Source: Fragilaria crotonensis (lineage: Eukaryota; Bacillariophyta; Fragilariophyceae; Fragilariales; Fragilariaceae). Taken from it: a stretch of DNA of 42,705 nucleotides. The translations under genes and the position numbers were made by a program. The stretch is from positions 1 to 42,705 of the forward strand of contig JAKSYS010000544.1 of the NCBI GenBank assembly GCA_022925895.1. Reading direction: 5' to 3'. Below, piece by piece: positions 3,426-37,981 of the stretch (its first letter is position 1; every line of letters begins with the position of its first letter). The notes beneath the pieces were generated by a model. It searched no databases. It was given only the letters and a program-made list of their open reading frames with translations, and had not been told where the DNA came from.

Positions 3426-4519
3426 ATGGCATCACACAGCATCCTTACTCAAGATGCCTCGTCTTTAAACAAGAGACAGGATCGCACCAGGAGAGCTGAT
3501 ACGAATGTAACGAAGAAGCTCCTAGCGGAGTTTCAAGGCCTAATTGCTTTCGCGTGCTACGACTCCCTTCAATTAGTCAAGGCGGCACATCAATGACTGA
3601 AACAGTCATGGAGCATTTGATGGCGAAGCTTTGTTTTGGTGAGAAAAATGGCGACCCTGATGTGATGTGCTATGAAGATCAGTTCCTTGGAGGCTTAACA
3701 AGTTCCAGGACTTTTCACCGATGATGTGGACTCCAGGGCATCGAATGGAGCGACTGTCTTGACCATGCTCCGTCTCTTCACCGGCAGTCATCCATCAACA
3801 TATACGTGGGCGAAGGTTCAATTGAAAAGGGTCTTCTTGCAAGGAAAAGTTTGCTCAATGCTACCGCTACTATCAGTGGAAGGACCTTGCTCCGATTGGC
3901 AAAAGAAGTGCTTTGCAACTGTAAGAAGATGATGGCTCTTGTGATGGCTCGCGATTCGCCGTACAAGGATGGATGCTTCCCGTCTGGCACCAATTGGGAT
4001 GACTATGCAAAATGGTGTCTTGTAGCATTCCATAAAAGTGAGATCAGCGGCGGTGTGTATCGAGCAGATAGTGCAAGTACTATGACTAGTAGTACGATTT
4101 GCACAAGCAACGACCGGCAGCAGAAGGATCCAGCAGTACCAGTTGATGCTGGTCAACATGATGTATTGGCCGAAAACGAAGGTGCTGGGAGAGCGTCCGA
4201 ACGACTGAACCTTGATGGCGACGAGCAGGTTGAGTTTACTGATGGCGGTGCAGTTCCTGTCGGATATTTCTTTAAGGGTTTCCTTGCTTGGAGTCTGTGG
4301 GGACTTATTCCGGTAGTGGAGTCGTCAACGACAACAATGAAGTCAACACTGTTTGGCGATACGAAGGTTGACACGTCTTTCGAAGGCACGTTTCTTGGCG
4401 CAACTGGGAGCCTCTTTGGCCAAGAAACCCTCCCTTGGTGGTACAGGGCGTTGAAATTATCAACGAGCAATCTCCGAAATTCCCGATGCGATAACTTGGA
4501 AACCGAAACGACACCATGA
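3426..4519 (+). pseudogene. Harbinger-1 second protein (accessory ORF2), frames broken
   Basis: This is the second gene of the element, transcribed towards the transposase. Reading starts at ATG 3426 (MASHSILTQDASS), runs to a stop at 3594-3596, continues in another frame from ATG 3593 (MTETVMEHLMAKL), meets TGA near 3720, and resumes in the same frame from about 3723 (ATG 3806) to 4519. I recognise no domain. It is not random: KLLAEFQGLIAFACYD and NCKKMMALVMARDSPYKDG match segments of the corresponding gene in Harbinger-2 (KVLKELQGFAGFVAYE; NCKKALAVVLRHDSPYK). Family knowledge says such elements usually encode a Myb/trihelix partner that helps the transposase bind DNA; that role is inference here. 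The last part overlaps antisense with the 3' end of the transposase frame and may not be coding. Confidence 0.5.
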
Positions 4520-6117
4520 CTGCTGTCGTTTCTAATCTGGTCGTCATCAGGAGCAACATCATTTTCTACTTCTTCCTCTTCTACCCAGTTGTCAGCATGG
4601 TAACGCCACCCGCATGAACTTCGATCCATTGTGAGGAAGTCTCGCACTTCAGAAGGAGAAATCAACCTCCGAATGGCACGCGGCATATCTGACAACTCAA
4701 ACTGTCCATTTGCCTCAACTTGCCAATACGACGGTACACCGTTTTGCCATCCAACCGACAATCCGTCAACATCGAGTAGCATATTATGAAGTGCGCAACA
4801 TGTTAACCAGACATTGTCAGCAACTTCCGTGTTATGCATCCGAATCCCAGTTTTTAAAATCCTCCATCGATTCTTCAATATACCAAACGTGCACTCGACA
4901 TCTTTACGTAAAGACTCCAACCATTGTGAGAAACGAATTTCCGATCGACTCGATGAGTTTTTGAAAGGCGGAATGGTTGATGACCACTCTAAGTATCCGT
5001 TGTCCACGATAACGTAGGCTCCTTTCATGCCGATTGTCTTCGTTCCACTCTTGTCCAACAAATCAAAGGTTATCTTTTCATCGAAACTTCCTTTTCGAAG
5101 CTCATCCAGGAAGTGATCAAACCTTGCGAGGGTCTTATCGTTCCACCGACCTGGGTGGCCTGTAGTCGTGTGCAGAATCTGCCTTTTGTGATTTACTGTT
5201 AGATTGTATGTTCGTGTCGTTGCTGCCATTTTGAAACCAAGATGACTCTGCCGAATTTTAAAGGAAACTTTCTCAAGCGGGATGTGGGTTGCATCGGTGC
5301 TACCAATGCAACCTGGGAATCCGGCAATCCTGTACGCGTGCTCGCATTCTCTGATTTCCTCCAAAGATGTAGGCATTCGTATGTACTTTGTATACAGCTT
5401 GCTAGCTCCAAACGCAACAAACTTGTGAAAAAAATCACGATGCACATGGCGGCTGATGAAAGTTGCTTCTTCGACGTCGTCAAAAGTGATCCCTCTACCA
5501 AGGTATCTTAAACTTCCCAACAAGAGAAGTTCTATTGGCGACACTTTCAAGGGCAATGCTTGGCAATTCCTCTGGTGTTGATCGGTCCATCCGGTCCATC
5601 TACAGAACAGCCCCTCGTCATCCTCGTCCTTCAGCATCGACAAAAGATCCAGATATGACTGATATGGCAAACGAAAGCGATTTCGAAATGTCTGAGACCA
5701 CCGAGTGCAATTTGGCTGAGGATTTTGCAAATACAAAATCCACCAAAGACTGAGTGTTGGCGTCAACTTTCGTTTTTTACCTGTTGATGGGTCCACAAAG
5801 TACTTCGGTCTTCGCTTTCGTGACTTCTTGACCCTCGGTGTATTGATAGCTTTCTTGTGATTCAAACTTCTAGCACTCTCCATTTTTGCGCTTGCACACA
5901 AGCACATTAACGTTAAAAGGTAATGTTGCTTTGCCGTATCTTCTTCGTCCTCTCTCCCAAGGAAATCCTCCAGGCGATCCCAATCAAGTGTTCCATCGTC
6001 ATGGTAGCAGGAGTCAATGTCGTCAAAATAATTTACTGGTTCGTCTCCTGTTTCAGAATGAAGGTTCCTCATCAATTGATTAATGATGAGTGCAGAAATC
6101 TTTCGGGAGGAGCTCAT
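4153..6117 (-). CDS. PIF/Harbinger transposase (DDE_Tnp_4), apparently intact
   Basis: This is a DDE nuclease expected to excise and reinsert the element. The frame is open from 6282, but the better start is ATG 6117 (MSSSRKISALIINQL), giving about 654 residues. Order: acidic N-terminal region; basic KKSRKRRPKYF stretch that may be nuclear targeting; helical DNA-binding region (RWSQTFRNRFRLPYQSYLDL, LLLGSLRYLGRGITFDDVEE); catalytic core. All three acidic residues are visible: Asp in GSTDATH (about residue 275), Asp in IVDNGY (about 372) and Glu in RKDVECTFGIL (about 408), followed by RWRIL and CALHN. The closest relative in the window is the transposase of Harbinger-2. The last 80 or so residues (after SWPKRLPV) have no counterpart there and overlap ORF2 antisense, so the true end may be extended by loss of an earlier stop. 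Confidence 0.9.
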   Translation of the reverse strand: MSSSRKISALIINQLMRNLHSETGDEPVNYFDDIDSCYHDDGTLDWDRLEDFLGREDEEDTAKQHYLLTLMCLCASAKMESARSLNHKKAINTPRVKKSRKRRPKYFVDPSTGKKRKLTPTLSLWWILYLQNPQPNCTRWSQTFRNRFRLPYQSYLDLLSMLKDEDDEGLFCRWTGWTDQHQRNCQALPLKVSPIELLLLGSLRYLGRGITFDDVEEATFISRHVHRDFFHKFVAFGASKLYTKYIRMPTSLEEIRECEHAYRIAGFPGCIGSTDATHIPLEKVSFKIRQSHLGFKMAATTRTYNLTVNHKRQILHTTTGHPGRWNDKTLARFDHFLDELRKGSFDEKITFDLLDKSGTKTIGMKGAYVIVDNGYLEWSSTIPPFKNSSSRSEIRFSQWLESLRKDVECTFGILKNRWRILKTGIRMHNTEVADNVWLTCCALHNMLLDVDGLSVGWQNGVPSYWQVEANGQFELSDMPRAIRRLISPSEVRDFLTMDRSSCGWRYHADNWVEEEEVENDVAPDDDQIRNDSSHGVVSVSKLSHREFRRLLVDNFNALYHQGRVSWPKRLPVAPRNVPSKDVSTFVSPNSVDFIVVVDDSTTGISPHRLQARKPLKKYPTGTAPPSVNSTCSSPSRFSRSDALPAPSFSANTSC

Positions 6118-6274
6118 GCTGATGATGCTGATAACCAGACAAGGTAGACTCAAGAATGCAGCTTCTCTACGAGGATAAATGAGACATGAATGGAGTGAAG
6201 TGTGTGGTCCACATGTGATCCGAAGCGAGCGAGGTGCCATCTGGCCCGTTTGCGTGGCCAATTTGTTTTCCGGG

Positions 6275-6443
6275 TTGTTCACAAACGGGACGGGCCCATT
6301 TGTGAAATTTTCAAAAGGAACCCGGTTTCACAAACGGGACGGGACACTTTGTTTTGGGAATGTCCCCTGTAAGGCAGTTATTTCGCAATTGGGACAGTCC
6401 CGTTTGTTTTGTTAGAGTTTTTGTTGGACCGTAAGCAACGGCC
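6275..6443. repeat. Right terminal repeat of Harbinger-1 with subterminal iterations
   Basis: It holds ACAAACGGGACGGG near 6283 and again near 6330, and the inverted form GGGACAGTCCCGTTTGT near 6391, then the terminus ending at 6443. The left end has the related ACAAACGGGAGCGTCCCA. Iterated subterminal motifs of this kind are usually transposase binding sites (inference). Confidence 0.65.
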
Positions 6444-6480
6444 TTATGTTCATCTTTCCTCCTCTACGACGGTACGAGTC

Positions 6481-6504
6481 CCCGTCTGTGTCCCCATTTC
6501 GAGC
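6481..6504 (+). repeat. Left 24-bp terminal inverted repeat
   Basis: Exact reverse complement of 17005-17028. It lies only 34 bp from the right TTA of Harbinger-1. Confidence 0.85.
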
Positions 6505-6810
6505 CGTCCATGCATTTCAAAGCGAACTTCATAGTGAAGGGATATATCTTATGATGTGAATGGAAAAAATATAGCACATGAATACTTTTATATTAATATA
6601 TTTTAACGGCTAAATCACAGATCGATCGATGTTGCGACAGCATAGGAATCTTGGTTTCCCTTTTTTTGGAAAAAAATGTGCTGTTCAAGTTCGAGGATGT
6701 TACTAGCATTTTTGTGTGTCCTTCACACAAAACACACACAAATTTCAAACCAGCCCCATTACCATTCTTGTCCCTCCTACTCTTCTCCTTTGTTCCCCAC
6801 TTTGCATTTT
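6505..6810. other. AT-rich subterminal DNA without a gene
   Basis: Contains AT runs near 6580-6605 and a CACACAAAACACAC stretch near 6723. No gene is visible. Confidence 0.5.
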
Positions 6811-7478
6811 GTTTCTGTAACGCTCACAGTTCACAGAGGAGTCAGGTAAGTTGGGCAATGATGTTTTGCGGTGTTTGTGATGGATGTTTGTTACTATTTT
6901 TTGACGCTTGTTATTTCATTTCATTTTGGCGCGGCTTGTTGTACTGTATGGGACTGCCGCTTGTTTCTGCAACGCTCACAGTTCACAGAGGAGTCAGGTA
7001 AGTTGTGCAATGATGTTTTTGCAGTGTTTGTGATGGATGTTTGTTACTGTTTTTTGATGCTTGTTACTTCATTTCATTTTGGCGCGGCTTGTTGTACTGT
7101 ATGGGACTGCCGCTTGTTTCTGCAACGCTCACAGTTCACAGAGGAGTCAGGTAAGTTGTGCAATGATGTTGTTGCAGTGTTTGTGATGGATGTTTGTTAC
7201 TGTTTTGTTGATGCTTGCTGTTACTTCATTTCATTTTGGCGCGGCTTGTTGTACTACTGTGCCGCTTTTTGTACTGTATGGGACTACCGTTTGTTTCTGC
7301 AACGCTCACAGTTCACAGAGGAGTTAGGTAAGTTGTGCAATGATGTTGTTGCAGTGTTTGTGATGGATGTTTGTTACTGTTTTGTTGATGCTTGCTGTTA
7401 CTTCATTTCATTTTGGCGCGGCTTGTTGTACTACTGTGCCGCTTTTTGTACTGTATGGGACTACCGTTTGTTTCTTGT
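6811..7478. repeat. Tandem repeat, four units of about 152-177 bp
   Basis: The landmark AACGCTCACAGTTCACAGAG recurs at 6819, 6971, 7124 and 7301 (spacings 152, 153 and 177 bp). Each unit contains GAGTCAGGTAAGTTG (GAGTTAGGTAAG in one) and most contain TTGCAGTGTTTGTG, resembling a 5' and 3' splice site 30-40 bp apart. Units 3 and 4 carry extra TACTACTGTGCCGC insertions. Confidence 0.85.
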
Positions 7479-7985
7479 ACTGTCTGGGATCTCGTACTAC
7501 TGCTGCGTGGGATCTCATACTGCTGCGTGGGATCTTGTACTACCGTGCCGTTTCTCGTACTCGTACTGTATGGGATCTTGTACTACTGCTGCATGGGATC
7601 TCGTACTACCGTGTCATTTCTTGTACTGTATGGGATCTTGTACTACTGCTGCATGGGATCTTGTACTACCGTGCCGTTTCTCGTACTCGTACTGTATGGG
7701 ATCTCGTACTACTGCTGCATGGGATCTCGTACTACCGTGTCATTTCTTGTACTGTATGGGATCTTGTACTACCGTGCCGTTTCTCGTACTCGTACTGTAT
7801 GGGATCTCGTACTACTGCTGCATGGGATCTCGTACTACCGTGTCATTTCTTGTACTGGTACTGGGATCTCGTACTACCGTGTCATTTCTTGTACTGTATG
7901 GGATCTTGTACTACCGCGTGGGATCTCGTACTACCGTGTCATTTCTTGTACTGTGTGGGATCTCGTACCGCGTGGAATCTCGTTC
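7478..7985 (+). repeat. Minisatellite cluster A (TGGGATCTCGTAC)
   Basis: Many imperfect units of TGGGATCTCGTACTAC with interspersed CGTGCCGTTTCTCGTAC. All three forward frames stay open across the array, which reflects the repeat's lack of stops rather than coding. Related clusters lie at 9832-10112 and, inverted, at 13140-13350. Confidence 0.85.
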
Positions 7986-7998
7986 AAAACCAAACGGC

Positions 7999-8126
7999 CA
8001 ACGCTCAATGGCGCACTCCAACGCTCGATGGTGCACTCAACCAGCACTCCTAACGTATCATTACTGCGCCATGTATGATTGTCTGATACGTTATGGGCTG
8101 GCGTTGGAGTGCGCCATTGAGCGTTG
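7999..8126. repeat. Nested palindrome, 26-bp outer arms
   Basis: The outer arms 7999-8024 and 8101-8126 are perfect reverse complements. Inside them TAACGTATCA (8051-8060) pairs with TGATACGTTA (8084-8093). A single strand could fold into a long cruciform or hairpin. A diverged direct copy of the first arm follows at about 8019-8038. Confidence 0.85.
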
Positions 8127-8158
8127 CACGGTTCGATGGATGATAGTATCCGACACCC

Positions 8159-8202
8159 GTTGCATACTCACAAGACCGCGTTGCATACTCACAAGACCGC
8201 TG
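8159..8202. repeat. Direct repeat of GTTGCATACTCACAAGACCG
   Basis: The motif is present twice in tandem just downstream of the palindrome and upstream of the dioxygenase-like gene. Confidence 0.7.
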
Positions 8203-8284
8203 CTGGGAAAGGTCCTCCATCCTCACTCAGTGACTTAAAGAGCTTCTCTCATTAATTCAAATAGCTCCCATTTTTACTCATTGA

Positions 8285-9753
8285 CATTGTATGTGGCAGC
8301 AGTAGTGCCGCGACCAATGGTACTTGGACCATGTTGCAAGCTTCATCGTGAAAAAGGTCACTGCTAGCCCCCAGCACATTGTACCTGGTAGCAGTAGCGC
8401 CGAGATCATCGGGAGTGGGAACATGATTCGTAGTTGCGTTGTGAAAAAGGTCACTGCTAGCCATCATGGTAGCAGTAGCACCGAGATCAACGCGACAACA
8501 ATCATGAGGCCTGCTACCGGTGTGAAAAAGGCCACTGCTAGCCATGACATTGTACTTGGTGGCAGCAGTAGCACCGAGATCAATGCAAGTTTCAGCATGA
8601 TGCCTCGTACTGTTGCAAAAAAGGCCACTGCTAGCCATGACATTGTTATAAGTACTAACAGGAGCACTGATGACATCGAATCAAAACGTGGCTTCGAATG
8701 CAAACGTGGCTTCCAACACCTGTACAAGTCAACAACTACAAACTCGAGCCGCAGAGTGAATGAGGCCTACAAGGCTACAGTTAGGAATGGTGCTCCAAAA
8801 AGCAAAAATGCCATGAGACGTGACAAAGCAAAAACGAGAAAGATTGCGTGCCTGACGGAAGTTGTGTCATCAAGTGTTCATGCATTGGGAAGGGCATTTC
8901 TGAGCACTCGACCAGTGTTTTACAGTGGAACCAAAAATAGAACGCTTCCAAACCCAATTCCGAATGGGATTATGTTATCTGCAGTTGAGGATTTGCGTGT
9001 GATTGATACAATTTCTGGTGCTCGAATGTTGTCATCGACCGGAGATACCGTTTTTATTTTGATTCCACGTCATGACGCAATCAAGGACAATACTTATGTG
9101 AAGAGGACATTGATGGCACTGTATGCTCTAGACAAAGGGAAAAAGGGTTTCCGAAGTGAGAGGGAAATCAAGAATCACAGTTGCGGAAGACAATGGGAAG
9201 TACGCAACTGTCGGCTTGAAACCAAGGAGAGGGTCGACAGGCGTATCCGAGTTTTGGCCTGAGAAGTTGGGTGAGACTGATAGAGAGGTGATTAGAAAAG
9301 TAATGAGTAGATGTCAGGAAGTTGCCAAAGGGTATCTACCATCAACTGAAGTCCGAGGACTTCTTTTTGCTCAATTGCTTGGGGGGTGGCAGCAAATAAG
9401 TGGAGTGACATTGAATCCCCTCTGGGGTAGCCTTGCATGTGGGAAGAATTACTATTTGAATTCTCATGTGGATGAAGACTTTTTCTATTCCTTGACAACT
9501 GTTGCTTCGGGAACAGGGAGTGCAAGACAATGATTGTTACATGATGGAAGCCGCCATTTGCAACTACTTTACGTTTGCCGAACAAGGAATTGCTGTGGCG
9601 CTGAGGCCTGGTGACATGCTGATCTTCAATCCGCTTTATCATCACTGCTTGTCGTCACGAACGGCAAGGTATGAAAACGATGATGTCTTCTGCTTGTCTT
9701 TGTATTTGAAAACTGCAGTTGTTGGACAGAATGACAATCGTTTACCTATGTAA
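8285..9753 (+). pseudogene. 2OG-Fe(II) dioxygenase-like protein in the MULE, frameshifted
   Basis: A likely Fe(II)/2-oxoglutarate oxygenase in three successive frames: to about 9140, about 9141-9500, and about 9501-9753. The breaks fall at an A5 run (9140-9144) and near ACTGTTGC (9500-9506). The N-terminus holds four or five degenerate repeats of VKKATASHDIVLGGSSSTEI, then a basic Lys/Arg-rich stretch. The C-terminus has the double-stranded beta-helix signature: HxD in YYLNSHVDEDFFYS, then LRPGDMLIFNPLYHHCLSSR with the second histidine and a nearby arginine. A TET/JBP-type nucleic-acid oxygenase is plausible but the substrate cannot be read from sequence. No clear ATG was found; the upstream frame is also disrupted. 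It converges with the JmjC gene, separated by minisatellite B. Confidence 0.6.
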
Positions 9754-9831
9754 TTTGTTTAATTGTGTTCTTGGTAGCTTGCGTTTGCTATCATCGTCGT
9801 CGCAGTTGTTGTCACTTTGGTTGCAGTCGTC

Positions 9832-10112
9832 CTGGGATCTCGTACCGCGTACCGCGTGGGATCTCGTACTACCGTGCCGTTTCTCGTACTGTATGTGCCT
9901 ATGGGATCTCGTACTATCGCGTGGGATCTCATACCGCGTTGGATCTCATACAACACCGTTTCTCGTACTGCGTGGGATCGTATGGCGTGGGATCTCGTAC
10001 TAGCAACCGCGTGGGATCTCGTACTGTGTGGGATCTCGTACTGTGTGGGATCTCGTACAGCGTGGGATCTCGTACAATTGTACAGTGTGGGATCTTGTAC
10101 AGCGCGGGATCA
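9832..10112 (+). repeat. Minisatellite cluster B (TGGGATCTCGTAC)
   Basis: About fifteen degenerate GTGGGATCTCGTAC units, same orientation as cluster A, in the spacer between the convergent dioxygenase-like and JmjC genes. Confidence 0.85.
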
Positions 10113-10207
10113 AAACATGAGTCACTACAAATATGTGACCATGAGGAACTACAACATGAGTTTGTAATTGATGTTTAATGCATTAAGTACTTCTACTAAC
10201 TTTTTAT

Positions 10208-13025
10208 TCATTTTCTTTTCTTTCGGACGACACTAGCGTGAGTACTTCCAACTCTCTTCTTTCTTACCTTTCTAGTACTCTTTGTCATCTGTTGCGAAGC
10301 ACCTTCACGAAAGTTTGCAACTGCCTCTAAGCGGGGAGAAACCTCGTCAAAGAAAGGAATCCTCTGCATCCCAACTATCTTCCTTGTTGCTGACAGCAGC
10401 TTAGACAACCCGTCATTGCTGAAGAAGCGTTGCTCGATCGAAAAATTTGAGTGACATGTGCAACAGCATTCCTGCCCACCTGCGCACTTTGGGCACAGGT
10501 TTCCTTCATCACAAGAACCCTTATGGGCAGTTGATGCACCAAAAGCTCCAGTGTGATTGAAAGCACTGTTCTGTGCATCAACATTGATGTTCATGACATG
10601 GAACCGACGATGCATTTCCAAGCCATAACACTGGCTGCACACGTTGAAATCCTTTTGTAGCAGCTGCTCACATCCCCAACAGTGCATATATGTGTTTGAT
10701 AACTCATGATAGCAAAGACTGCAAGAGTATCCTGTGTTATCATATGGATCAACAGGAAACACAGACAGATTCTCAGATGTATTCGGCAATTTTGTGGGAA
10801 AACCTCAGCAACCACGCACATTTCATGCCTGATGACGAATTCCAATGATGGCAATAGACCTCGTAGTAAATTCCGATGGAATTCTGGATCCTCAGGCTTC
10901 CCAGCTGATAAATGAGATTCACTTTGAGCACTTTGTTTGAGCAAACACAGTTTGGGGATGCCAAGAGACTGTTTTGGTGGTGCAAAGTTTCTGTTGCGAA
11001 ACGCAGATTCCAGTGTCGACGTCATTTCTCTGTTGATGCCCTCTGCTGTGTGCCCCATGAAGCACCAGTCCCAGGCTATGGAGAAGTTCACCATGTTCTT
11101 GAACTCCAACATCCCCCTTTTGCTTCTGACTTTCTTTTTCCTTAAAATTTCCTTCCTCAGATATGAATGGCAATCATCTTTTGCCAGTGCCTCCAACCCA
11201 AGCTTTCGAAATGCGTGGAACCTACCCTTCCCGATGTGTAAATGTTCACCAGGTCCCAATACCAGAACAACTGGGCAATAGCTATGATAGACAAAAGTGT
11301 TAGTTGACACGCTGAAATGAGGAATGAGAAGTCATAAATACTTACTTTAGTGATTTCATTCGCATGATTTCATCGTTGCCTGGCCACTTGCATAACTTCA
11401 TTCCTTCCTGTGATGATGCACACAACAACGTGAGACTAAAGTGGACTTCAAAGTCGGACAGTGCTGAATTCTCCAAGGAATTATTTGTGGAATCCTTACC
11501 TGTTCCTCATTGTAATGAGGAGTTTTGAAAACATCATCACCAAGAGTATTGAGCATTGCATTTGTGTCGTGCCCCTTAGGCAATCTACGAAGCAGTATAA
11601 CTTCATTATAACCAGATAGGCAAAGATGCCCTGAATCGACTGTCCCAAAACCTAAAACGTGAACTGTCAGTGTGGGCATACGTAGTGCGCCTGCATCATA
11701 ACATTTTATGCTTACCATCTTGGTGAAAGTTCGTGAAGGCCCCTTGGGGAGTTACGTAAAGATTAGGCCCCATGTCAGGTCTAGCAGGTCTTGGCACTGT
11801 GTGTTGCACACATTTCCCCTCCAGGTAAGATCTCGGGGAACAAGAAGTTCTTCATGAAGTGATTAAAGGCAGCTGGAAGTTGAGTTTCCATACGAAAATC
11901 AAGCATATAAATGGTTTCTGTCATGTCCAACTCTTCCTTTCCACCTTCCGAGTTGATGAGATAAAGTTTCTCTTCAACTTCAGTGTTGCTGTGTGACGTT
12001 TCATTTGAAGTACCATCCCTTCCTCGTCGTTTGAGGTATGCAAAGTAATCCCCAATGGTCATGGTCACATCTTTCTTAATCTCCTGGTACTCTTTACACC
12101 CTGTTGCGGGATTGACAACGTAAGCAAAGCGGCGGAAACTGTGGTACCGGTCTGCACCCAACTCGTGTGCCATCCTATCCTGATTCCAACATTCATGTCC
12201 CATGCCATGATAAAGGCCGGAGGTGATGACAGCAATGTCATCACGTTCCATCATGACATAAAGGAACTCTTTTGCTTTCTTAGACAAGTTCATACCATGC
12301 TTGAGGGTTACCCTCAGAATTGAATTCTCTTTGTCCAGATGCCATGTGCATGATGTATCGTCATTGTCTGATATCAATGGCGGCAGAGGTGCAGGGGGTG
12401 GAAGAGGGGGAAGGTTGGAAACATCAGAAGTGTGCACTGCATATTGCCTCCAAGCAATATCTTCCACATAGTAGTCAACAGGGACCCCTGCACCGACGAC
12501 CCCCGCACCAACAGCAGGAGCACCGACAGCAGGAGCCCCGACAGCAGGAGCACCGACAGCAGGAGCACCAACAGCAGGAGCAACACCAGTACCGACAGAT
12601 GGAGCTGGTTCCGCCTCACCTTTTAACACCCAACAGAAGCCAATGTTGTCCAGGAGCTTGACACGGGAAGCCTTCAATAAGCCGTTCCTATACGCTTTTC
12701 TTTGATTGCTCATCCAGTAGCTGAGATGACTCCTGTACTTTGGAACACCAGAAATGCCGTTGGACCTAACAAACTCCTCATAGTCCTGGAATGACTCATT
12801 CCATGTCCTCTCCCGTGCATCCCAATCAAAATTAACAGAATCTAATTTGTCAATTCTGCATTGCCTCAGCTGTCCCTTCTTTTTGTATTCTCGTTGTTTC
12901 CTGACCCATCGACCCAATTGTTGGTTGGAAATATCACTTTTTGCAAACGTCAAGTGCCCATGTGTCTCCTTATATTTCATCATTTCCTTGAATTTCTCAT
13001 TCCATGTGTCATCCAAAAATGACAT
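10208..13025 (-). pseudogene. JmjC-like oxygenase with helicase-associated repeats, four exons, two frameshifts
   Basis: Exons read 13025-11716, 11651-11500, 11407-11346 and 11281-10208, with introns of 64, 92 and 64 bp. The start is MSFLDDTWNEKF. Residues 1-130 are two helicase-associated repeats (W..F..Y...HG....LGRWVRKQRE). A GAPAV repeat linker follows. The JmjC-like core has LYVTPQGAFTNFHQDG with the HxD iron site; splicing then gives FGTVDSGHLCLSGYNEV, and exon 4 gives VLGPGEHLHIGKGRFHAFRK with the second histidine. The C-terminus is cysteine-rich (CSLCYHELSNTYMHCWGCE; CPKCAGGQECCCTCH), probably zinc-binding. One-base shifts occur at about 11795-11823 and at an A4 run, 10790-10793. JmjC enzymes demethylate histones or hydroxylate proteins; the target here is unknown. 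Confidence 0.7.
12505..12590. repeat. 15-bp minisatellite encoding GAPAV
   Basis: Repeats of CACCGACAGCAGGAG and variants inside the JmjC gene, giving a Gly-Ala-Pro linker between the helicase-associated repeats and the oxygenase core. Confidence 0.8.
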
Positions 13026-13139
13026 TGTGGAAACAGACTACAGTCCTTTGAGTTGTCAGACTACAGTCCTTTGAGTTGTCGTTTGTTGTTTGATTGTGCT
13101 TTCATTCCTTTGTGAGCGCGCTGTGTGTCAATAATCAGA

Positions 13140-13350
13140 GTGAGATACTGCGCTGTACGAGATCCCACGCGGTATGAGATCTCACACAGTACGAGATCCC
13201 ATGCGGTACGAGATCCCACGCGGTGGTACGAGATCCCATACAGTACAAGAAACGGCACGGTGATACGAGATCCCACGCGGTAGTACGCGAGCCCACGAGG
13301 TACAAGATCCCACACAGTAAAAGATCCAACGCGGTACGAGATCCCATCCC
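13140..13350 (-). repeat. Minisatellite cluster C (inverted)
   Basis: GTACGAGATCCCACGCGG units, the reverse complement of clusters A and B, in the spacer between the JmjC start and the end of the MULE transposase. Confidence 0.85.
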
Positions 13351-13503
13351 AGTACAATGTACTAAGCTTTTCTACTAGACATGTTTGTCCACAATGTATT
13401 TCTAGGTTGGGGCGTTTCATGTTGCTGGCATCAGCAGAAAGAAACAAGACCCCTAACCAGAAGGGAGGGTAGCTTAGAGTTCAATGAGTAACTGCTTCCT
13501 AAC

Positions 13504-16500
13504 TCAACCTTTACCTCGTTTCTGCGGACTGAGAGATGGCCTCAGTCTTTTGTTCTTCCTTGACTTATCAACTTGAGGAAGACTTGCAAATTCATGTTGT
13601 GCTGTTGCAGCACTCTCCACACGATTCCTCTGCTGGATAAAGCTTGACAACAAGCTCTCCAGGCCCCTTCTCAATTCAAGTGCCATAGCACCGCTCCCTT
13701 GTGCATACGTACTAACTTGTGTATACAATGCCAAGTTGGAGGAGTATACACTTGTCCCCCAACCAATGCAATACTGCTATCACTCTTGTCTTTCCCAGAA
13801 GATGCCGAAATGAACACTTCCTGGGAGCAGCCAGCAGTCATCACTGATATGGAATCTTGGGAAAGGGCAAAGTGTCCTGTTCATGAGTTCCTAGAGGAAC
13901 ATCATTAATGGTTGCCCCACTTTGAACCTGGTAACAATGCAGAAGTACAGTTCTGGTTGTGGGCGCGTAGAAACGTGTCATGCAAGAGATTGTGATTGTT
14001 GTCCACTGTGGGCCCCTCAAAGCAGAACTCAGAAGCCACAGTTCATCAATCTTCTCCTACTTGAATAGGGACCACGTCGTTCTCCATCTCTTGCGCGGTC
14101 ATAAAGGAAAGTCAACATGTCATGTTTGCCATGATAATAAAGATAATCCTTTCTCCACCTAGCCGATGCATGATATGCCGACAGTGTGCCAGAATCAAAG
14201 GAATGGCCATGGGGAGAAATGATGGAAAAATGTGACGACATGTAATCCCAAATCGACTGAAGTAACCACAACTGCACTCAAGATTGATGGCATTACGTAA
14301 CACCATATTCTCTTCAGTTGATGACGCATACATGTGCTCCACCAGTCGAACCTCACGAACCCGAGAAACTGAGGAGTGACTTTGTCAAACTTCGTAGAGG
14401 CAGAATTGGCATCACATTCCTCCACGCCAGGTGAGGAATATCTCCTCTTGAGGAAGGCGTCCGTAGAATTCGTGTCACCAAGTAACAGAGGCGTGCATTG
14501 TATTGATGTGCAAGCAGTTTGGACCCATATTCAGTTAGTACGTCACCAACAATTTGTGGACGCATACTTTTGTAGTCAAGCGCAGAAGCTGCATCAACCT
14601 CCCTCCGGCTCATCTGGCGTGATAAAATGGTAGAGAGCAACACAGGATCGATCTATACCATGGAACGGACGAGGACCCAAAGGATGTCTCTTGATTGTGC
14701 TTGACTCACTTTCCACATTCGAGGTGGTCCTCATGTTGAAGCAGCGGACATGCAATTTATTGGAAAATGAAATGCTCATCTTCCTTGGCGCAATGGACGT
14801 CATCACAAAATTAGTCAAGGCCTCTGCCATCACATTCCCCATGGCAGAAGGGTCAACAACCTCAGCACTTCCAAGGAAGATGTACAAAAGCTTCAATGAG
14901 ATGTCAAACTCATCAGATGTTTCGGGATAGTCGGACAAAGAGTACATCCATTGCTGAACAGCTTCAAATTGTGCCTTACCCAAGGCACTGAGTCTGCCAT
15001 CACTCAGGTGCGAATGTTTGAGGCCTCGATTTATCAAATGCCACATGCACAGCATATGCTTACTGTTCCGCCACGGACTACCACGGTCGCCAATAAGATC
15101 CACAAGGGAATACATCTGAAGATCGCCATCAGTCAAAATAATTTGATTCCGCTCAACAGAGGTACTTCCATGGAGTTGCACAAATGCATCACGGAAGCAC
15201 CAATCAAAAATCCAGCGGCATTGTGATGGTAGAAATGCCTGGAACACACGGACAATTCGGTTCTCAGAAGTCTTCGCTGTCATGACAAGCAAGGGCCGTT
15301 TCTCAGCATTGGTTCCCATGGTAACATCGGCACACAGTGTTTCCGGAAACATACCAAAGATTCGCTGCTGCTGTTTTGATGCCCAAGCTGCACCAAGGAG
15401 CAGCTTTGTATTCCCACTAAGACCAAGCGCTTTTCTCACCGATTCAGCATAGGAAAGAGTTGAAGCATCAGTCTCACGTGAGCAATAATGATTGTGCTCA
15501 GAACTGGATCCCTGTTCCTCCCAGTCCTGATTATAGTGAGAAGCCGGGTGGCTGTATTGTCGTGTACAAGAAGAATGTAATCAAGGCTTTCCTCATTGCG
15601 CAAGTAGTGCACAAGTCTTTCAGCTGGTGATTGACCTAAGTCCACTGCAGTACCGCCACCAGGACCGACCTGATTTCCTCGTGTGCCAGCACACCTCCTC
15701 AGCTGGTCAGAGGAAAGAGAGATGCCAGTTCGCTCCACAATCAGAGCCTGCACAATTGCAGGCTCTGAATTCAGTGAAATGCATTGCCTAGATAACTCAA
15801 GTTCCAATTGCGGCACAGTGTGATACGACAATCGGACATCAGCAGGTTCCTTTTTTTGGTGACCTTCATGGGATTTACACCCTGTCCCATCCGCACAAAA
15901 GTACCAGCGTCCAGCAACGTTGTTGTTAAGGCCATCATTTGGTTCCCAATATAGTGAGAATGCAAATGGACATATTGACTCCTTGTTTGCTGCTGAGGGC
16001 GAATGCGTTTTGACGAACGACCGGAAGACTTGTACTGGTTGATGTTGTTGTCGTTGTTGTTGTCGTTATTATCATTGTCATTGTCGTTGTCATCAATCTT
16101 GTTCCTCAAAAGATCCTTCTTGTCGTCATGAGCTCGAGAGTGCTGACAAAAGAATCGCAGTTTATTCGATGCCTTCTCCCAACCTTTGGATGCCACTTTG
16201 AAACCTGCCTGGGCACATGCCACTGCAATAAATGGGATCACATGCTCTTTTCGGGATGAGGGACTGTTGGAATTAAAGCGACGAGGCAGATATTGACGAA
16301 GGTGCTTGCAATTGTCATCCCGGTTGCTACGCATTCCGGTCCCAATGAAGTCAGCAAGATTAACAGTCCTGATGGACTCATCACCGTCGCCAACTTGAAC
16401 TTCACTGTCACCAACCTGAACTTCACTGTCACCAACCTGAACTTCATCCTCACCAACAACCTGAACTTTGTCCTCACCAACAACCTGAACTTCGTCCTCA

Positions 16501-16607
16501 CAAACCTGCCCTTCAACAAGCTGAACTTCTATAGGAAGAAATTCAGTGACCCATTGTTTATTCACCTCAACAAGAGCAGTAATGCGACTGAGGACAAATG
16601 GATCCAT
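13504..16607 (-). pseudogene. MULE transposase with SWIM zinc finger, multiple frameshifts
   Basis: Mutator-type transposase running inward from the right end of the element. It starts at ATG 16607 (MDPFVLSRITALV). The N-terminus has acidic EVQVGD repeats (16380-16510) and an Asp/Asn run (16040-16100). The DDE core lies at about 15440-14600: FPETLCADVTMGTNAEKRP (first Asp), ILTDGDLQMYSLVDL (second Asp), LCMWHLINRGL. The SWIM finger CSCGYFSRFGITCRHIF is at about 14270-14225, followed by GTLSAYHASARWRKDYLYY. At least five frame changes are needed, one at a T7 run (15851-15857, A7 on the coding strand). The last piece, 13734-13504, is Arg/Lys-rich and may be the C-terminal tail. As sequenced, no functional protein is encoded. 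Confidence 0.8.
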
Positions 16608-17004
16608 TAGTAGTGAAGTAGCTCGTGTGCCCCTCCTTCACAATGGTTGCCCGCAGTCGATCAATTGTTGTTGTGTGCTGTGTTGATCGTGATGTGTTGT
16701 TGTGTGTGCGTTGTGTTGCTTAGTTTGTTTGTTCTCAGTTTTGTGATGAGAGAACCGCGCCAAAAACAAATGACAACAAGAGCAGAGGATGATATATCCA
16801 AGTCACAAAACTTTTTTGAATATCACATCATGCAAGATTCCATTGAGGCAGTTGTAACACATGTATTAAATAACGTCTCACAACCGTAAGTCAAATAGTC
16901 AAAAAAATGAAACGGTAAAAAAACGGCAATTGTATGACATAGACCATATAGTACTTTAATAGTATTTAATTGTACAGTGTAAAATTAATTAGCTGGCTTG
17001 ATGC
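16608..17004. other. Right subterminal region of the MULE
   Basis: Probable transposase 5' flank: GT/TTG-rich from 16660 to 16740, then AT-rich to 16990. No gene is seen. Confidence 0.5.
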
Positions 17005-17028
17005 GCTCGAAATGGGGACACAGACGGG
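17005..17028 (-). repeat. Right 24-bp terminal inverted repeat
   Basis: Exact reverse complement of 6481-6504. Confidence 0.85.
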
Positions 17029-17453
17029 CTCTCTGTTCAAACTTTGTTCATGGCTCCAGGCTCCAGGCTCCAAGCCGTTTTTTGGTGGTGCAGTGTCAAT
17101 GCATACAGTATTTTTGGATTCAAAGTACGGTACAGTACTGTTTAGCGCATAGCGATTGGTCAGCTACGTACTGAGTACTGGAAAACCTTGTACTGTCGTA
17201 CCAATGACCAATGACAGAAGGGGAGCAATGCTGCGTCGTGCTTGCCGTGAGGTGTTTCTACGAGAATTTCCATATAACAACAGCGTTAGGAATACTGTAA
17301 CCAACACGTTATACTGTACGTTTTCGACCGCTCACCGCACATCGATCGAAAAGCCAAATGCTGAGCACCTCACGTATTCTCTTGTAATCACAACTCACTT
17401 CACTCCCTTCCCTTTCAAGTCTACACTCCAGTACAATATAGCAAGTTTCAACC
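17029..17453. other. Upstream region of CCT8
   Basis: Contains GGCTCCAGGCTCCAGGCTCC (short tandem CCAGGCT) near 17052 and several TACTG/GTAC clusters near 17125-17195. A promoter is expected here but no defined element is recognised. Confidence 0.4.
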
Positions 17454-19025
17454 ATGTCATCCATGTCATACAATGCCGCCTCCGGCTTGGGAGGGATGCT
17501 CAAAGACGGTCATAAACACTGGGACGATGCCGTGGTTCGAAACATAACTGCAGCGACCGAGTTATCCACCATGGTTTCCACCTCCTTCGGCCCGTTTGGG
17601 CGTCATAAATTGCTTATCAATCATTTGGATCAAATGAGCGTCACAAGTGATTGCGCCATGATTTTGAAGGAATTGGAAGTGGAACACCCAGCTGCTAAAC
17701 TGTTGGCTTTAGCCAGTCAGAAGCAGAAGGAAGAATGTGGGGATTCGACCAACTTAGTCGTCATGTTTGCAGGGGAGTTGCTGCGCCAAACGCTCACGCT
17801 GATGAAAATGGGTCTTCACGTCAGCGAAGTTCTAGCGGGATATCACATCGCAGCATCGTGCCTCTGGGACGAACTACCAAAATGCGTCACAGCAACTTTG
17901 CCGATCGCAGCACCGGACGAACTGGTTAAGATTGTGGAACCCGTCATGGCGGCAAAGATTTATGGCTCACATGTGGCGTTGGCTCCACTCGTTGTGCAAG
18001 CAGGTCTCTGTGTTCAAACTGAAAAAGGAAAAATCAGCCCGGACTCAGTCCGAACGATTAAGGTCTTGGGTAGCTCAACTGCAGACAGCCGTATGGTGTC
18101 CGGCTATGTCTCGCAACGTCCAGTCGAGACCCTCGAGACGAATGCACTTGATTGTAAAATCGCCGTCTTTGCCTGCGGCATGGAAGCGTCGTCGACTGAG
18201 GCTAAGGGTACGGTATTGATGAAGAACGCGGATGATTTGAAAAACTATAACGCTACCGAAGAACGAAAAATGGAGGAAATCATTCAATCCATTGCCGAAA
18301 CTGGAGTCAAGGTCATTGTTACGGGTGGAAGCGTGAGCGAAATGGCTCTTCACTTTGTTAATCGTAACAAGTTAATTCTCATGAAGCTGGGATCCAAATG
18401 GGAATTGCGACGCCTTTGTCAAGCCGTGGGCGCCACGGCGTTGGTGCGCCTGGGACCACCGACTCCGGACGAGATGGGCTTTGCCGACTCCGTAGCCCCT
18501 CTTCAGCTGGGAAGCAAGACACTGACGGTGTTTGAGAACAAGACGGGCAAATTGGCGACTCTCATCCTTCGAGCATCAACGCACAGCATGCTGCAGGATG
18601 TTGAACGCGCTGTCGACAATGGAATTCACGCTCTCAGTCAAGCGAGCAAGAGTGGTGGCCAGTGCGTTCCAGGAGCGGGGGCGACTGAATTTCATCTCTC
18701 CCAGAAAATCCTTCAGAGAGCTCAAGTCTCTCCGGGCCTGGATCAGTACGCCATTCGGGCCTTTGCCCAAGCTTTGCAGATTGTCCCACGGACTCTCGCT
18801 GAAACCGCTGGCTGGAGTGGTCCAAACACGTTGGCTGATATGGTGGCTTTCGAAGGAGACTTTGTTGGAATTGATTTGGAGAATACTAAGGTTGGAACTA
18901 CCAGCGTTTTGGATCTTCTTGCCACCAAGACTAGTGCCTTCCAGTTGGCTCTCGATGCTGCATTGACTGTCTTGAGGATCGATCAAATTATCATGAGTAA
19001 ACAGTCTGGTGGACCGAAACAGTAG
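17454..19025 (+). CDS. CCT8: T-complex protein 1 subunit theta (CCT8)
   Basis: A subunit of the cytosolic chaperonin CCT/TRiC, which folds actin, tubulin and other proteins in an ATP-driven double ring. The single exon of 523 residues is near the usual subunit length. It starts at ATG 17454 (MSSMSYNAASGLGGML). Theta-type features include INHLDQMSVTSDCAMILKEL, ELEVEHPAAKLL, KGTVLMKNADDL, VVTGGSVSEMALHFVNR, KWELRRLCQAVGATAL, and the C-terminal VLRIDQIIMSKQSGGPK. The nucleotide-binding loop reads GDSTN at about residues 96-100 where GDGT is usual; the catalytic Asp is kept. VPGAGATE replaces VPGGGATE. There are no frameshifts. It converges with the phytochelatin synthase gene about 420 bp downstream. 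Confidence 0.96.
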   Translation: MSSMSYNAASGLGGMLKDGHKHWDDAVVRNITAATELSTMVSTSFGPFGRHKLLINHLDQMSVTSDCAMILKELEVEHPAAKLLALASQKQKEECGDSTNLVVMFAGELLRQTLTLMKMGLHVSEVLAGYHIAASCLWDELPKCVTATLPIAAPDELVKIVEPVMAAKIYGSHVALAPLVVQAGLCVQTEKGKISPDSVRTIKVLGSSTADSRMVSGYVSQRPVETLETNALDCKIAVFACGMEASSTEAKGTVLMKNADDLKNYNATEERKMEEIIQSIAETGVKVIVTGGSVSEMALHFVNRNKLILMKLGSKWELRRLCQAVGATALVRLGPPTPDEMGFADSVAPLQLGSKTLTVFENKTGKLATLILRASTHSMLQDVERAVDNGIHALSQASKSGGQCVPGAGATEFHLSQKILQRAQVSPGLDQYAIRAFAQALQIVPRTLAETAGWSGPNTLADMVAFEGDFVGIDLENTKVGTTSVLDLLATKTSAFQLALDAALTVLRIDQIIMSKQSGGPKQ

Positions 19026-26747: not shown

Positions 26748-29031
26748 CATTTGGTTGTTGCTGACATGGAGACCCACAAGAAGGGCAAGTCTGGTGTCCT
26801 GATCAGTCGGAAGGCACCTGCTTGTGGTGCAACTGATACCGAATCCGACGAGTCCCCCATTTTGGTTCGCAAGCGTAAGGTTTCGACGAATTACAGCGAT
26901 GACTCCGACGATGACGTACCCTCGAGACGGCGGCGTCGCACTACAGCAGTGGAGGTCGTCGGTGGACGTACCTTCCCGGTGAGTTGGCCCGCAAGATCAT
27001 CGCTGGGTACATGAATCCCCGAGTTGTGCCGGGAAATGCCTCTCGCGATCCCGTCCGTCACGATTACTGGTGCAGCCGGCCTCAGGCTGCTGCACTTTTG
27101 GCGAAGTGCATTCCCAGGCATTTGTCGAATGCTTTTGTTGACAGTCTTACTCGTCATCAGGCCAAGTTTGATAATGTTCTTGACGTCGGCCAATGGGGTG
27201 TATTGCCAAATGGAATCCCCCCACGGGCGAAAATCTGTCGTACCTATGTTGCGAATATTCATCTTGCATTCATTGATGTTTTTGGGAAGGACAACGTTTC
27301 TTTGGAAATGTGTGAGCATCCGAATGGCGACCACAGCAAGCGATCAGTTCAATGTCCTTACATACTTGAGATTGCTGTGCTTGACGCTGTGTTGAATCGG
27401 ACAAAGAAGACACCAAGGGTTTTGAAGTCAAAGAAGGCGACTGTCGATACTCCTGTGAAGATGAAGATTACCGATGTCGGTCTGAAGGATCTAAAGCATG
27501 ACACACGCTTTCGTGCTCTCGTTGCTGTTCTTCCAGAGGCTGGCGTATTTTATTGTCACCGTGAGCGGAGGAAGGAATACGTTGGTGTTGCGAATACGCA
27601 CGTTCCAATGGACATCAACTGGCTTCGCATTGTGAAAAACGGAAGTCGCGACAGTTGTTTTGCTTCGGGAGGCTATGTGAAACGACTGTGGGATGGTGAT
27701 GCGGGTGTGTTTGGAAGTGGAAGATTTCGTGTCGTTCTACGGCATTTGCAATTCCTGATAAATTGACTTTGCCATTGGTGCGATGGCCCAACTCCGATCG
27801 ACACTGCCTCAAGACAGTCCATCAGGTGGCTCAATGTGCGGATGAAGATTCACCACGTCTGCCTCCTGACTTTATTGATAACGTTGATCGTTCCGGGGAC
27901 GGAGTTGAGGTACTCCGCAGAGAGTACCTTGACAAGTATGTGAATTCGTCGACGGCGAAGAGGAATTGTCGCCATTATGTGGCAAGATATCTCTACAAGA
28001 ACATTGATCCAAATTCCGTTTGGGTCATCGATCCAAAGTTGACGGAGCCACGGATGTCAATGTGTCGGTGCACATTCGGCACCCCAATGGCGGGGACAAG
28101 GTAGCCCTTGTGAGGATTCTTTGGTCCAAATCCGATACCTTCCCATGCTGTACCAGATTGTGAACGTTTGCTGGGCATGATCCGTGATCATGCTTCAAGT
28201 ATCGGTTCATCACTGAAGAAGGGTGCTGTGGTGCGCTCGAGTTGTGGCGACTGGGGAAAGATGCATGCCATTGGGTCACGTGTTCACTTGAACAAACGTC
28301 GGCGAATTCAGTTTGTTACATCATCAGGTCCTACTGAACAGCGGAAATTGCGCCGGGCGGTCAGGGCAGCTGCTCAACTGCTTGGGGTGACAATTCCAGC
28401 CGTCCTTCGTGTAATGCAGGATGTTGAGGATGATTCCGACATCCTTCCCCAGCATGGAATGGCAGGTGATGGTGAATATGGCAGGGTATCGCACTCCATG
28501 GATGTCAGTGATAAACTGGTGAATGCTTCGCACTACGACGCCAACGATGGATCACAGGGTGCCAGCATCTTCACGGAAGACAGGCCTGGTTCCACCAAGG
28601 ACTGGTATTTTGTTCTGCCGAATGTCTTTGGAAGAAAAAATGGAGAGGGTAAAACCTACAATGGTATGGCGATTCGTCTGACCCATGGTGTGCTTGTAAG
28701 CTGGGATGGCAGGCTCATCAGGCACTGCACGGCAAAGATGGATTGTGCACGTGAGTGTCATGTCTACGGAACCTTCTTTGCTGCCAAGTCGAAGATTGTT
28801 ACTTTTGGGATGGATCGCAAAATCAGAAGACACCTACGCCGGGAGCTCCTAGAGGAACAGAATGGGAAGGCTTCATTGTCTGCTGCCACTGTTGATGATG
28901 TTGTTCCTGACGACGGGTATGTTCCCATTTTTCAGCATTCTGATGACAGCAGTGGCGGTGAATCAGGTGATGATAGTGATTGTAGTGTGGATGAGGAATT
29001 GCGGAGACATTGTTGGCAAGCGCATCATTGA
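26748..29031 (+). pseudogene. Second 2OG-Fe(II) dioxygenase-like protein, frameshifted
   Basis: A plus-strand gene with at least four frame changes. The N-terminus (ATG 26748 in frame with ATG 26739 or 26766, METHKKGKSG) has an acidic and Arg-rich stretch that may be nuclear targeting. The middle holds HDYWCSRPQAAALLAKCIP, FDNVLDVGQWGVLPNG and MCEHPNGDHSK. The C-terminal part (28168-29031) carries the oxygenase-like signature: VNASHYDANDGSQGASIFTE with HxD, DWYFVLPNVFG, then MAIRLTHGVLVSWDGRLIRH with the second His and an Arg. Apparent breaks are near 26970, 27740, 28050-28110 and 28140. The fold call rests on motifs only. A TET/JBP-like role in DNA base oxidation is possible, not shown. It converges with the Plavaka-like transposase. 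Confidence 0.5.
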
Positions 29032-32700: not shown

Positions 32701-33177
32701 GGTGATGGTATTGACAGGAGGCACGGTGGCCGGATGTTCGTCATCAGCAGCCCAAGCAGACAACTGGTTGCAAACAGCACTTTCATCATAAGAATCGTCA
32801 TGTGCAACAGGAAAATCCTCTTCATCAACAGCATCATCATCGTTGGGAATATCTTTAGATGGGAGAAGCACATCTGTATCCTCTGAGAGGGAAGAGAGCA
32901 TCTCGTTGACCTTCAAAGCACCATTCATTGAGTGGATAAAGTCAAAATTTGATAGCCTTCCATCATTATGCCTACGATTGGTAGAAGACTCCATGGAAGG
33001 GAACAGCACTTGTTGTCGAGTTGGATTCAGCTCGCTTGCATAGTCCAAAGAACACTGAGGGTTTCGGGCAAAGTGACGGGAAAGACCCATGGGACCTGCA
33101 ACGACAACACGACCGCAGGAATTGCATTGATCCTTCTCAGGTGAAAAGGCAAAGCCTTTGCAAGAGCGAGAGGTCAT
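29800..33177 (-). pseudogene. Plavaka-like (CACTA-related) transposase, at least three frameshifts
   Basis: Start at ATG 33177 (MTSRSCKGFAFSP). The N-terminus has a zinc-finger-like CNSCGRVVVAGPMGLSRHF. The core shows ILAIDKTTCDIGGGGRLSLE (first catalytic Asp region), MRVLGFINTSP, then YIPFIIGDTEGHDGLCGHF with LCRTCECP, and KAMSQQYLKNAFDNVRFGLH with FGACPGEILHLILIGWFKN. This order matches Plavaka/Tnp2-type transposases. The 5' frame ends at 31894; the GDTEGHD part is in another frame (31918-31568); the C-terminal half returns to the first frame. Breaks are at about 31965-31980, 31638-31650 and 31568-31580. The C-terminal 300 residues include WAQIWESFIMFQEH and a Lys/Arg-rich end. The frame continues upstream of 33177 but that stretch has no similarity to a domain. 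Confidence 0.75.
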
Positions 33178-37705: not shown

Positions 37706-37981
37706 GAGCAGAAAACGAGTTACGGGAAAAAGTTCTTTTCTGTTTGGATGCGCCCCATATCCCAAATCCAATCAGATACCACTTCGGTTTCTGATCGTGC
37801 AACAGAAACCATTTTGGAAAAACAGAAACCGAATAAACATCAATGGGATTCGAGATTCCCTCGGATACCGTCATATTTTGCGCGATATCACTGTAGTGTA
37901 CAAAGTAAATTAATTCCATCACACATCGGAGATCATTTCATTTGATTGTACACTTGAGCGCCATCATCGTTTCCAAGAACA

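What the first reader, a model, noticed from the sequence alone, without database searches (positions are those of the whole stretch)
8285..13025. Two different Fe/2-oxoglutarate oxygenase genes (JmjC and HxD-type dioxygenase) inside one transposon
The JmjC gene has FHQDG and a downstream GRFH; the other has NSHVDED and NPLYHHCLSSR. JmjC enzymes can erase histone methylation, and TET/JBP enzymes oxidise methylated or unmodified bases. Plant VANDAL MULEs carry anti-silencing proteins and fungal KDZ transposons are linked to TET/JBP genes. A transposon encoding both kinds of eraser would be a self-protecting system against host silencing, which I do not know to be described.
Basis: partly seen in the sequence, partly recalled or inferred. 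Interest (0 to 1): 0.85.

Follow-up and report, generated by a model that had tools for sequence, protein, structure and literature searches.

The report
Diatom transposon with two oxygenase-like genes
A recently active jumping gene in what is very likely a diatom carries, besides its own mobility gene, a captured histone-demethylase-like gene and a second, strongly conserved enzyme-like gene shared by other jumping genes in that genome; both may help such elements escape silencing, though neither activity is shown.

Summary
Window 6476-17033 is one 10.56 kb Mutator-like (MULE) transposon with 24-bp inverted ends. It holds an HxD-motif gene (+), a JmjC-like gene (-) and a MULE/SWIM transposase (-). 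Seven other copies, complete or deleted, were found; the host is very likely a diatom. The JmjC-like gene is a captured relative of a host gene on contig C203: 52% identity and matching introns. Its profile aligns to canonical JmjC with the iron ligands in register, but Pfam JmjC does not call it and the usual 2OG lysine aligns to Asn. The HxD protein has no Pfam or NCBIfam match over cut-off and is not TET/JBP by Pfam. Its single-sequence fold failed, so its oxygenase nature rests on conserved H-x-D...H motifs. It is a real element gene: 55 loci, 32 within 7 kb of a MULE match (0.7 expected), dN/dS 0.06-0.17 where measurable, and it has moved between MULE and helicase-type elements (p-AU 0.004). 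JmjC was found in this one family only. Dual anti-silencing is the likeliest function, but inferred. It resembles fungal TET/JBP-carrying transposons and VANDAL/VANC.

The parts
6476..17033 (.). complete MULE-type transposon, 10,558 bp (family F1)
   Evidence: five other copies begin and end at the same positions in unrelated flanks; no target-site duplication visible by eye in the printed flanks of six copies
6481..6504 (+). left terminal inverted repeat, 24-bp core
17005..17028 (-). right terminal inverted repeat, 24-bp core
6809..7475 (.). tandem repeats of 153/177 bp near the left end
7485..7983 (.). minisatellite (unit resembles TGGGATCTCGTAC...) upstream of the HxD gene
   Evidence: at most a candidate protein-binding array
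8306..9753 (+). HxD-motif gene (putative Fe/2OG oxygenase): basic N-terminal part, then NSHVDED ... RPGDMLIFNPLYHHCLSSR; two apparent frameshifts in this copy
   Evidence: dN/dS
9833..10111 (.). minisatellite between HxD and JmjC genes, same unit (limits approximate)
10208..13025 (-). JmjC-like gene: helicase-associated (HA) domain matched twice, JmjC-like core (FHQDG ... GRFH), Cys-rich C-terminal part; three GT-AG introns; two apparent frameshifts in this copy
13142..13357 (.). minisatellite upstream of the JmjC-like gene, inverted relative to the other arrays (limits approximate)
13490..16637 (-). MULE transposase (MULE/RNase H-like and SWIM domains), broken into several ORFs here; longer ORFs of 697 and 399 aa in copy C12
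   Evidence: left limit estimated from the C12 alignment

Best explanation
Shown: window 6476-17033 is a recently mobile MULE that carries two accessory genes. One (HxD) is an exchangeable accessory gene of several transposon families of this genome, kept under strong purifying selection. The other is a JmjC-like gene of the same lineage as a host gene, captured with its introns and joined to HA domains (DNA-binding-type by general knowledge, not tested). Inferred: both products are Fe(II)/2-oxoglutarate oxygenases made for the element's own benefit. The JmjC-like protein would be brought to element DNA by its HA domains and remove repressive histone methylation; the HxD protein would oxidise a silencing mark on DNA (or RNA) of the element or its transcripts. 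Together they would keep the transposase gene expressed.
For: Element limits and TIRs. Few substitutions between copies, so recent movement. HxD at 55 loci, 32 within 7 kb of a MULE match against 0.7 expected, though loci of one family are copies of each other; in the DNA-level set 24 of 40 had a MULE partner, 23 of them downstream and in opposite orientation. HxD lies inside a second TIR-bounded MULE of 12.1 kb. HxD dN/dS 0.06-0.17 in 8 of 10 family pairs, dS saturated in 2 and above 1 in all. H-x-D present at 17 of 17 loci found by a neighbouring motif, distal His 20 of 20, Arg 19 of 20. HxD tree joins MULE family F1 with helicase family F2 at 99/99 and rejects one MULE clade, p-AU 0.004 (two long branches flagged). 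JmjC-like protein: HA domain E 5e-16, absent from the whole host relative; core aligned with five canonical JmjC of the same genome, E 7.6e-4, ligands in register, against E 0.27 for prolyl-hydroxylase-type domains. 13 PF00145 matches in the genome.
Against: No oxygenase fold shown for HxD: single-sequence model pLDDT 32.6; profile comparisons with JmjC and P4H give E about 0.1 and 0.5; no match over cut-off in Pfam, none in NCBIfam, one weak unnamed PHROG. Its Arg lies only 5 residues after the distal His, closer than I recall for 2OG binding. Two F5 loci read (C786, C57) have lost the stretch with H-x-D by internal deletion. JmjC-like protein: not called by PF02373 at E up to 10; 2OG-lysine position holds Asn in element and host gene (role of the lysine recalled); hhalign probability only 25%; found in one family, no copy whole as assembled, C197 with a deletion and a stop at its start; selection on it as an element gene not shown. 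No expression, methylation or activity data.
Confidence: 0.42

Rival explanations
1. HxD is the functional accessory enzyme (an oxidiser of DNA or RNA), while the JmjC-like gene is a passenger captured Pack-MULE fashion in one family, without a role for the element.
For: HxD is in at least five families under strong constraint; JmjC was found in one family and is partly deleted in most copies; no copy is whole as assembled; the captured gene keeps the introns of its host relative.
Against: The JmjC frame is open over about 818 codons in copy C197 after splicing, at 52% identity to the host gene, and is joined to an HA domain that the host gene lacks. An unused passenger should decay, unless it was captured recently from another lineage.
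Confidence: 0.33
2. HxD is not an oxygenase but a conserved DNA-binding or structural transposition cofactor whose H-x-D and H motifs are coincidental.
For: No profile or structural support for the oxygenase fold; basic N-terminal part; conservation extends well beyond the motifs; Arg spacing atypical.
Against: H-x-D, a GIAVALRPGDMLxFNPxYxHC segment and 59 residues between the two His, which resemble 2OG oxygenases as I recall them, are nearly invariant; a marginal Cupin_2 match on the same segment in one member (E 0.24, below cut-off).
Confidence: 0.2
3. The two genes sit together by nested insertion or chimeric assembly and are not one element.
For: The region is repeat-rich and indels are common.
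Against: Five further copies on other contigs keep the same order between the same ends, with different internal deletions, several cutting inside JmjC; another MULE family has HxD within its TIRs too.
Confidence: 0.03

Closest known systems
TET/JBP-carrying DNA transposons of fungi (Kojima 2025, PMC12730594: abstract, section 4.2 and passages seen)
   Same: diverse DNA transposons share an HxD-motif enzyme gene that moves between unrelated transposon types and is mostly intact; proposed to counter silencing
   Different: HxD here matches no TET/JBP model, the host is very likely a diatom, the carriers are MULEs and a helicase-type element, and one family adds a JmjC-like gene. The paper's listed carriers include no MULE; it has no hit for MULE, Mutator, diatom or JmjC, and names MuDR only for VANDAL and SET-carrying families in the passages seen
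MULE-Diatoms, group 37 of Dupeyron et al. 2019 (PMC6446971: passages and part 2 of section 6, with half of its table, seen)
   Same: diatom MULE, SWIM transposase, no TSD
   Different: listed with one ORF and TIRs of 123-124 bp; here three genes and inverted ends of 24 bp (32 bp in family F4)
VANDAL MULEs with VANC anti-silencing protein (passages of PMC6446971; listings and starts of abstracts of PMC5735166 and PMC10398659)
   Same: a MULE with an accessory gene beside the transposase; minisatellite arrays here could be binding sites
   Different: VANC is described as a sequence-specific anti-silencing protein; an oxygenase is not mentioned in what I saw; relation not tested
KDM4-like JmjC genes of endogenised giant viruses in Amoebidium (PMC11244446, passages seen)
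   Same: host-derived JmjC gene carried by a silenced invader
   Different: virus, KDM4-type JmjC; no HxD partner mentioned in the passages seen
SET-domain MULEs and HarbingerS of Phytophthora (PMC6446971 table; PMC12730594 introduction passage)
   Same: stramenopile transposon with a histone-modifying domain
   Different: methyltransferase, not oxygenase

Membership tests
MULE superfamily | MULE/RNase H-like transposase domain with SWIM zinc finger | tested here: met
   PF10551 6.6e-7 and PF21056 2e-7, both over cut-off, in the window; SWIM 5.3e-4, just over cut-off, in copy C12
MULE superfamily | terminal inverted repeats | tested here: met
   24-bp perfect TIR
MULE superfamily | 8-11 bp target-site duplication | tested here: not met
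   none visible by eye in the flanks of six F1 copies or two F4 copies; PMC6446971 lists diatom MULEs as 'No TSD and not indicated'
JmjC | match to PF02373 | tested here: not met
   no match at E up to 10 for the spliced protein or for the core of the host relative
JmjC | H-x-D/E ... H iron ligands at JmjC positions | tested here: met
   profile alignment E 7.6e-4 (one comparison), probability 25%, both ligand sites in register
JmjC | 2OG-binding Lys (recalled) | tested here: not met
   aligned residue is Asn
JmjC | demethylase activity | not testable with these tools
   needs enzyme assay
TET/JBP | match to PF12851 | tested here: not met
   no match in HxD proteins; none in the genome at E 0.1
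TET/JBP | H-x-D and distal His | tested here: met
   17 of 17 and 20 of 20 loci; shared by the whole superfamily, so not diagnostic
Fe/2OG oxygenase superfamily (HxD protein) | double-stranded beta-helix fold | tested here: inconclusive
   single-sequence model unusable, pLDDT 32.6; profile comparisons gave no support but are weak tests
VANDAL/VANC anti-silencing | accessory protein that lowers methylation of its own element | not testable with these tools
   needs methylation data

The most novel reading that the evidence does not exclude
Transposons of this diatom share a transposon-specific Fe/2OG oxygenase family outside TET/JBP that oxidises a silencing mark on nucleic acid, and one recently active MULE has paired it with a captured, DNA-targeted JmjC histone demethylase: a two-layer eraser kit against host silencing in a single mobile element.
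Probability: 0.28. Interest if true: 0.87.

Novelty: new variant of a known kind. Interest (0 to 1): 0.62.

Why it matters
Silencing erasers on transposons are described in fungi and anti-silencing proteins in plants. A parallel system in diatoms, with a protein family that the profile libraries used here do not recognise and that hops between unrelated transposons, would suggest that this counter-defence arose more than once and could reveal a new nucleic-acid-modifying enzyme. The pairing with a captured JmjC-like gene makes a test possible: whether a transposon attacks both DNA and chromatin marks. The HxD protein alone is worth a structure, because it is under strong selection and its chemistry is unknown.

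Tried and rejected
Rejected: TET/JBP membership of HxD by Pfam. A host origin for HxD: the only long-frame weak match, C394 (E 0.024), is an acidic stretch of what looks by eye like a SNF2-type gene and was taken as chance. Nested insertion. JmjC as a general partner of HxD: no JmjC match in 11 loci of other HxD families; beyond F1 the protein search found only the C203 gene and one short match on C132.

Led nowhere: single-sequence AlphaFold of the window HxD; PDB sequence searches; PHROGs and NCBIfam; viral and prokaryote collections gave no confirmed relative. The nature of the helicase-type elements and of the gene called 'GNAT-like' in my notes (a guess; Pfam finds nothing over cut-off) stays open.

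Rows dropped before counts: the rows with E above 0.001 were left out and matches closer than 3 kb were merged; the tool calls such counts lower bounds, and the MULE query was the F1 transposase, so other MULEs may be missed. Of the 23 HxD loci without a MULE match, 5 were read; all 5 had the helicase gene or part of it, Pfam being run on two. The other 18 were not read. In one search indels inside the minisatellites were left out.
Full report
What is there. The genome holding the window is 62.1 Mb in 881 contigs, and the window is contig C497. Nineteen matches to the silicon-transporter family, 18 over cut-off and the best at 4e-193, make a diatom by far the likeliest host (that this family marks diatoms is recalled, and it is not wholly confined to them). 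Comparison with sibling copies shows one element from 6476 to 17033. It ends in a 24-bp perfect inverted repeat, found at 38 sites with up to two mismatches while the reversed control pattern has none. No target-site duplication is visible by eye in the printed flanks of six copies. The transposase has MULE and SWIM domains. Dupeyron et al. list diatom MULEs with SWIM and 'No TSD and not indicated' (PMC6446971, table part seen), so this agrees with known diatom MULEs.

Copies. Family F1 has eight copies found: C497, C197, C12, C31, C108, C739, C39 and C355; for seven both ends were found. The window copy is the only one without internal loss. C197 lacks window 12985-15363, C12 lacks 11377-12575, C31 lacks 11418-14348, C108 lacks 10881-15358, C739 lacks 10774-15460; C39 keeps three identified pieces and C355 only 12970-17033. 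HxD DNA is in 6 of 8. JmjC DNA, whole or part, is in 7 of 8, and C355 reaches its first codons. Aligned pieces differ by 2-20 substitutions but by many indels, which points to recent spread and probably to uncorrected read errors. As assembled no F1 copy has HxD or JmjC whole. HxD is open over 411 residues through H-x-D in C12, and over 236 residues with both H-x-D and the distal His in C197. JmjC in C197 has lost its first codons and has a stop before residue 40. Whole HxD frames stand at 5 of 13 loci of other families checked (L012, L013, L016, L044, L045; the last two were fetched because one search showed an open frame).

The HxD gene. Related genes are found at 55 loci, in at least five sequence families (my grouping). 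In F1, F4 and F5 they lie beside a MULE transposase, in F2 and F3 beside a helicase gene (five loci read: Pfam DEAD and Helicase_C over or at cut-off in L013 and L012, like ORFs in L011, L014, L015). Of the 55 loci, 32 have a MULE match within 7 kb, 0.7 expected by chance; many loci are copies of one another, so these are not 32 independent events. In the DNA-level set of 40, 24 had a MULE partner and 23 of these were downstream and opposite. F4 is a 12.1 kb element with 32-bp inverted repeats, no visible TSD in two copies, and HxD inside. Between families dN is 0.18-0.35 and dN/dS 0.06-0.17 in 8 of 10 pairs, with dS saturated in two and above 1 in all, so the ratios are rough. H-x-D is kept at 17 of 17 loci found by a neighbouring motif, the distal His at 20 of 20 and the Arg at 19 of 20; the F5 loci C786 and C57 have lost the H-x-D stretch by deletion. 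The tree puts F1 (MULE) with F2 (helicase) at 99/99, and holding all MULE-borne copies together is rejected, p-AU 0.004; two long branches were flagged. So the gene, or what surrounds it, has been exchanged between element types, as Kojima reports for TET/JBP in fungi (PMC12730594, abstract). F3 and F4 also share an upstream gene of unknown kind.

Is HxD an oxygenase? Not shown. No Pfam family is over cut-off (best E 0.022, unrelated), NCBIfam gives none, PHROGs one weak unnamed family. No credible PDB match by sequence (best E 0.054, unrelated), no PF12851 in the genome at E 0.1. Profile comparison gives E about 0.1 with JmjC and 0.5 with prolyl-hydroxylase-type domains, but the two control families did not find each other either (E 0.17), so the test is weak. 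The single-sequence fold failed. For it speak the conserved motifs, the 59-residue spacing, and the segment GIAVALRPGDMLxFNPxYxHC, which resembles the distal-His strand of such enzymes (recalled). I put the oxygenase reading at about 0.7.

The JmjC-like gene. Spliced from copy C197 it gives an open frame of 818 codons, without the first 39 residues of the window gene, with introns of 64, 92 and 64 nt, an HA domain matched twice and a Cys-rich tail. Its only substantial relative in the genome is the gene on C203, which lies beside the host gene TRAPPC13; one short match lies on C132. Over 617 codons identity to C203 is 52%. Two introns fall at the same place and phase, the third within one residue in a gapped stretch (C203 then using a GC donor), and the host gene has one more. 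It was therefore very likely captured from that gene lineage with introns. HA is absent from the host gene. Aligned with five canonical JmjC domains of this genome, FHQDG and the GRFH His fall on the iron-ligand positions, E 7.6e-4 for the one comparison, probability 25%; the same profile gives E 0.27 with prolyl-hydroxylase-type domains. Pfam JmjC calls neither it nor the host core, and the usual co-substrate Lys (recalled) is Asn in both. No JmjC match was found in 11 loci of other HxD families.

How it likely works. Shown: recent movement, capture, constraint on HxD, exchange of HxD between elements. Inferred: HxD modifies a silencing mark on nucleic acid; the JmjC-like protein, held on DNA by its HA domain, acts on histones. 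The genome has 13 matches to C5-DNA methyltransferases, so 5mC is a possible target. Arrays of a short repeat stand before the HxD gene, between the two genes, and inverted before the JmjC gene; F4 and F5 have other arrays on both sides of HxD that match better inverted than direct in F4. These could be binding sites.

Known or new. Known relatives in kind: VANDAL/VANC and SET-domain MULEs (PMC6446971, passages), TET/JBP in fungi (PMC12730594), a DNA-methyltransferase gene in a brown-alga Sola element (PMC12477816, passages), KDM4-like JmjC in endogenised giant viruses (PMC11244446, passages). A diatom MULE with a JmjC-like gene plus an HxD gene outside TET/JBP was not seen in the listings, which cover open-licence papers and show only the top rows. 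I call it a new variant of a known kind.

Noticed in passing
window 28114-29031 (+): ORF with SHYDAND ... LTHGVLVSWDGRLIRHCT, resembling another HxD-type dioxygenase by eye; no Pfam match over cut-off. It lies near a weak Plavaka transposase match at 31897-33357 (-) (E 5e-5, below cut-off), so a second transposon here may carry its own oxygenase-like gene.
   Followed up: partly
L011-L015 (C588, C269, C592 twice, C84): Elements with a large helicase-type protein and Cys-rich parts beside HxD; transposon class not identified.
   Followed up: partly
L013, L015, L016, L017, L019 left of HxD: An upstream minus-strand gene shared by helicase-type family F3 and MULE family F4, nothing over cut-off in Pfam.
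   Followed up: partly
C152:62921-63127, C173:28107-28313, C626:17045-17245, C218:496655-497456, C207:100949-103924: Short paired copies of a variant of the F1 inverted repeat, likely non-autonomous (MITE-like) elements.
   Followed up: no
window 4153-6327 (-) and 37958-39784 (+): Two DDE_Tnp_4 (Harbinger-type) transposases, the second matched in its 38765-39781 part.
   Followed up: no
window 17442-19025 (+): TCP-1/cpn60 chaperonin gene (PF00118, 5e-127) about 400 bp from the right end of the element.
   Followed up: no
C39:22038-38546: F1 ends 16.5 kb apart with only three F1 pieces identified in the part read, so probably a copy with foreign DNA inside.
   Followed up: no
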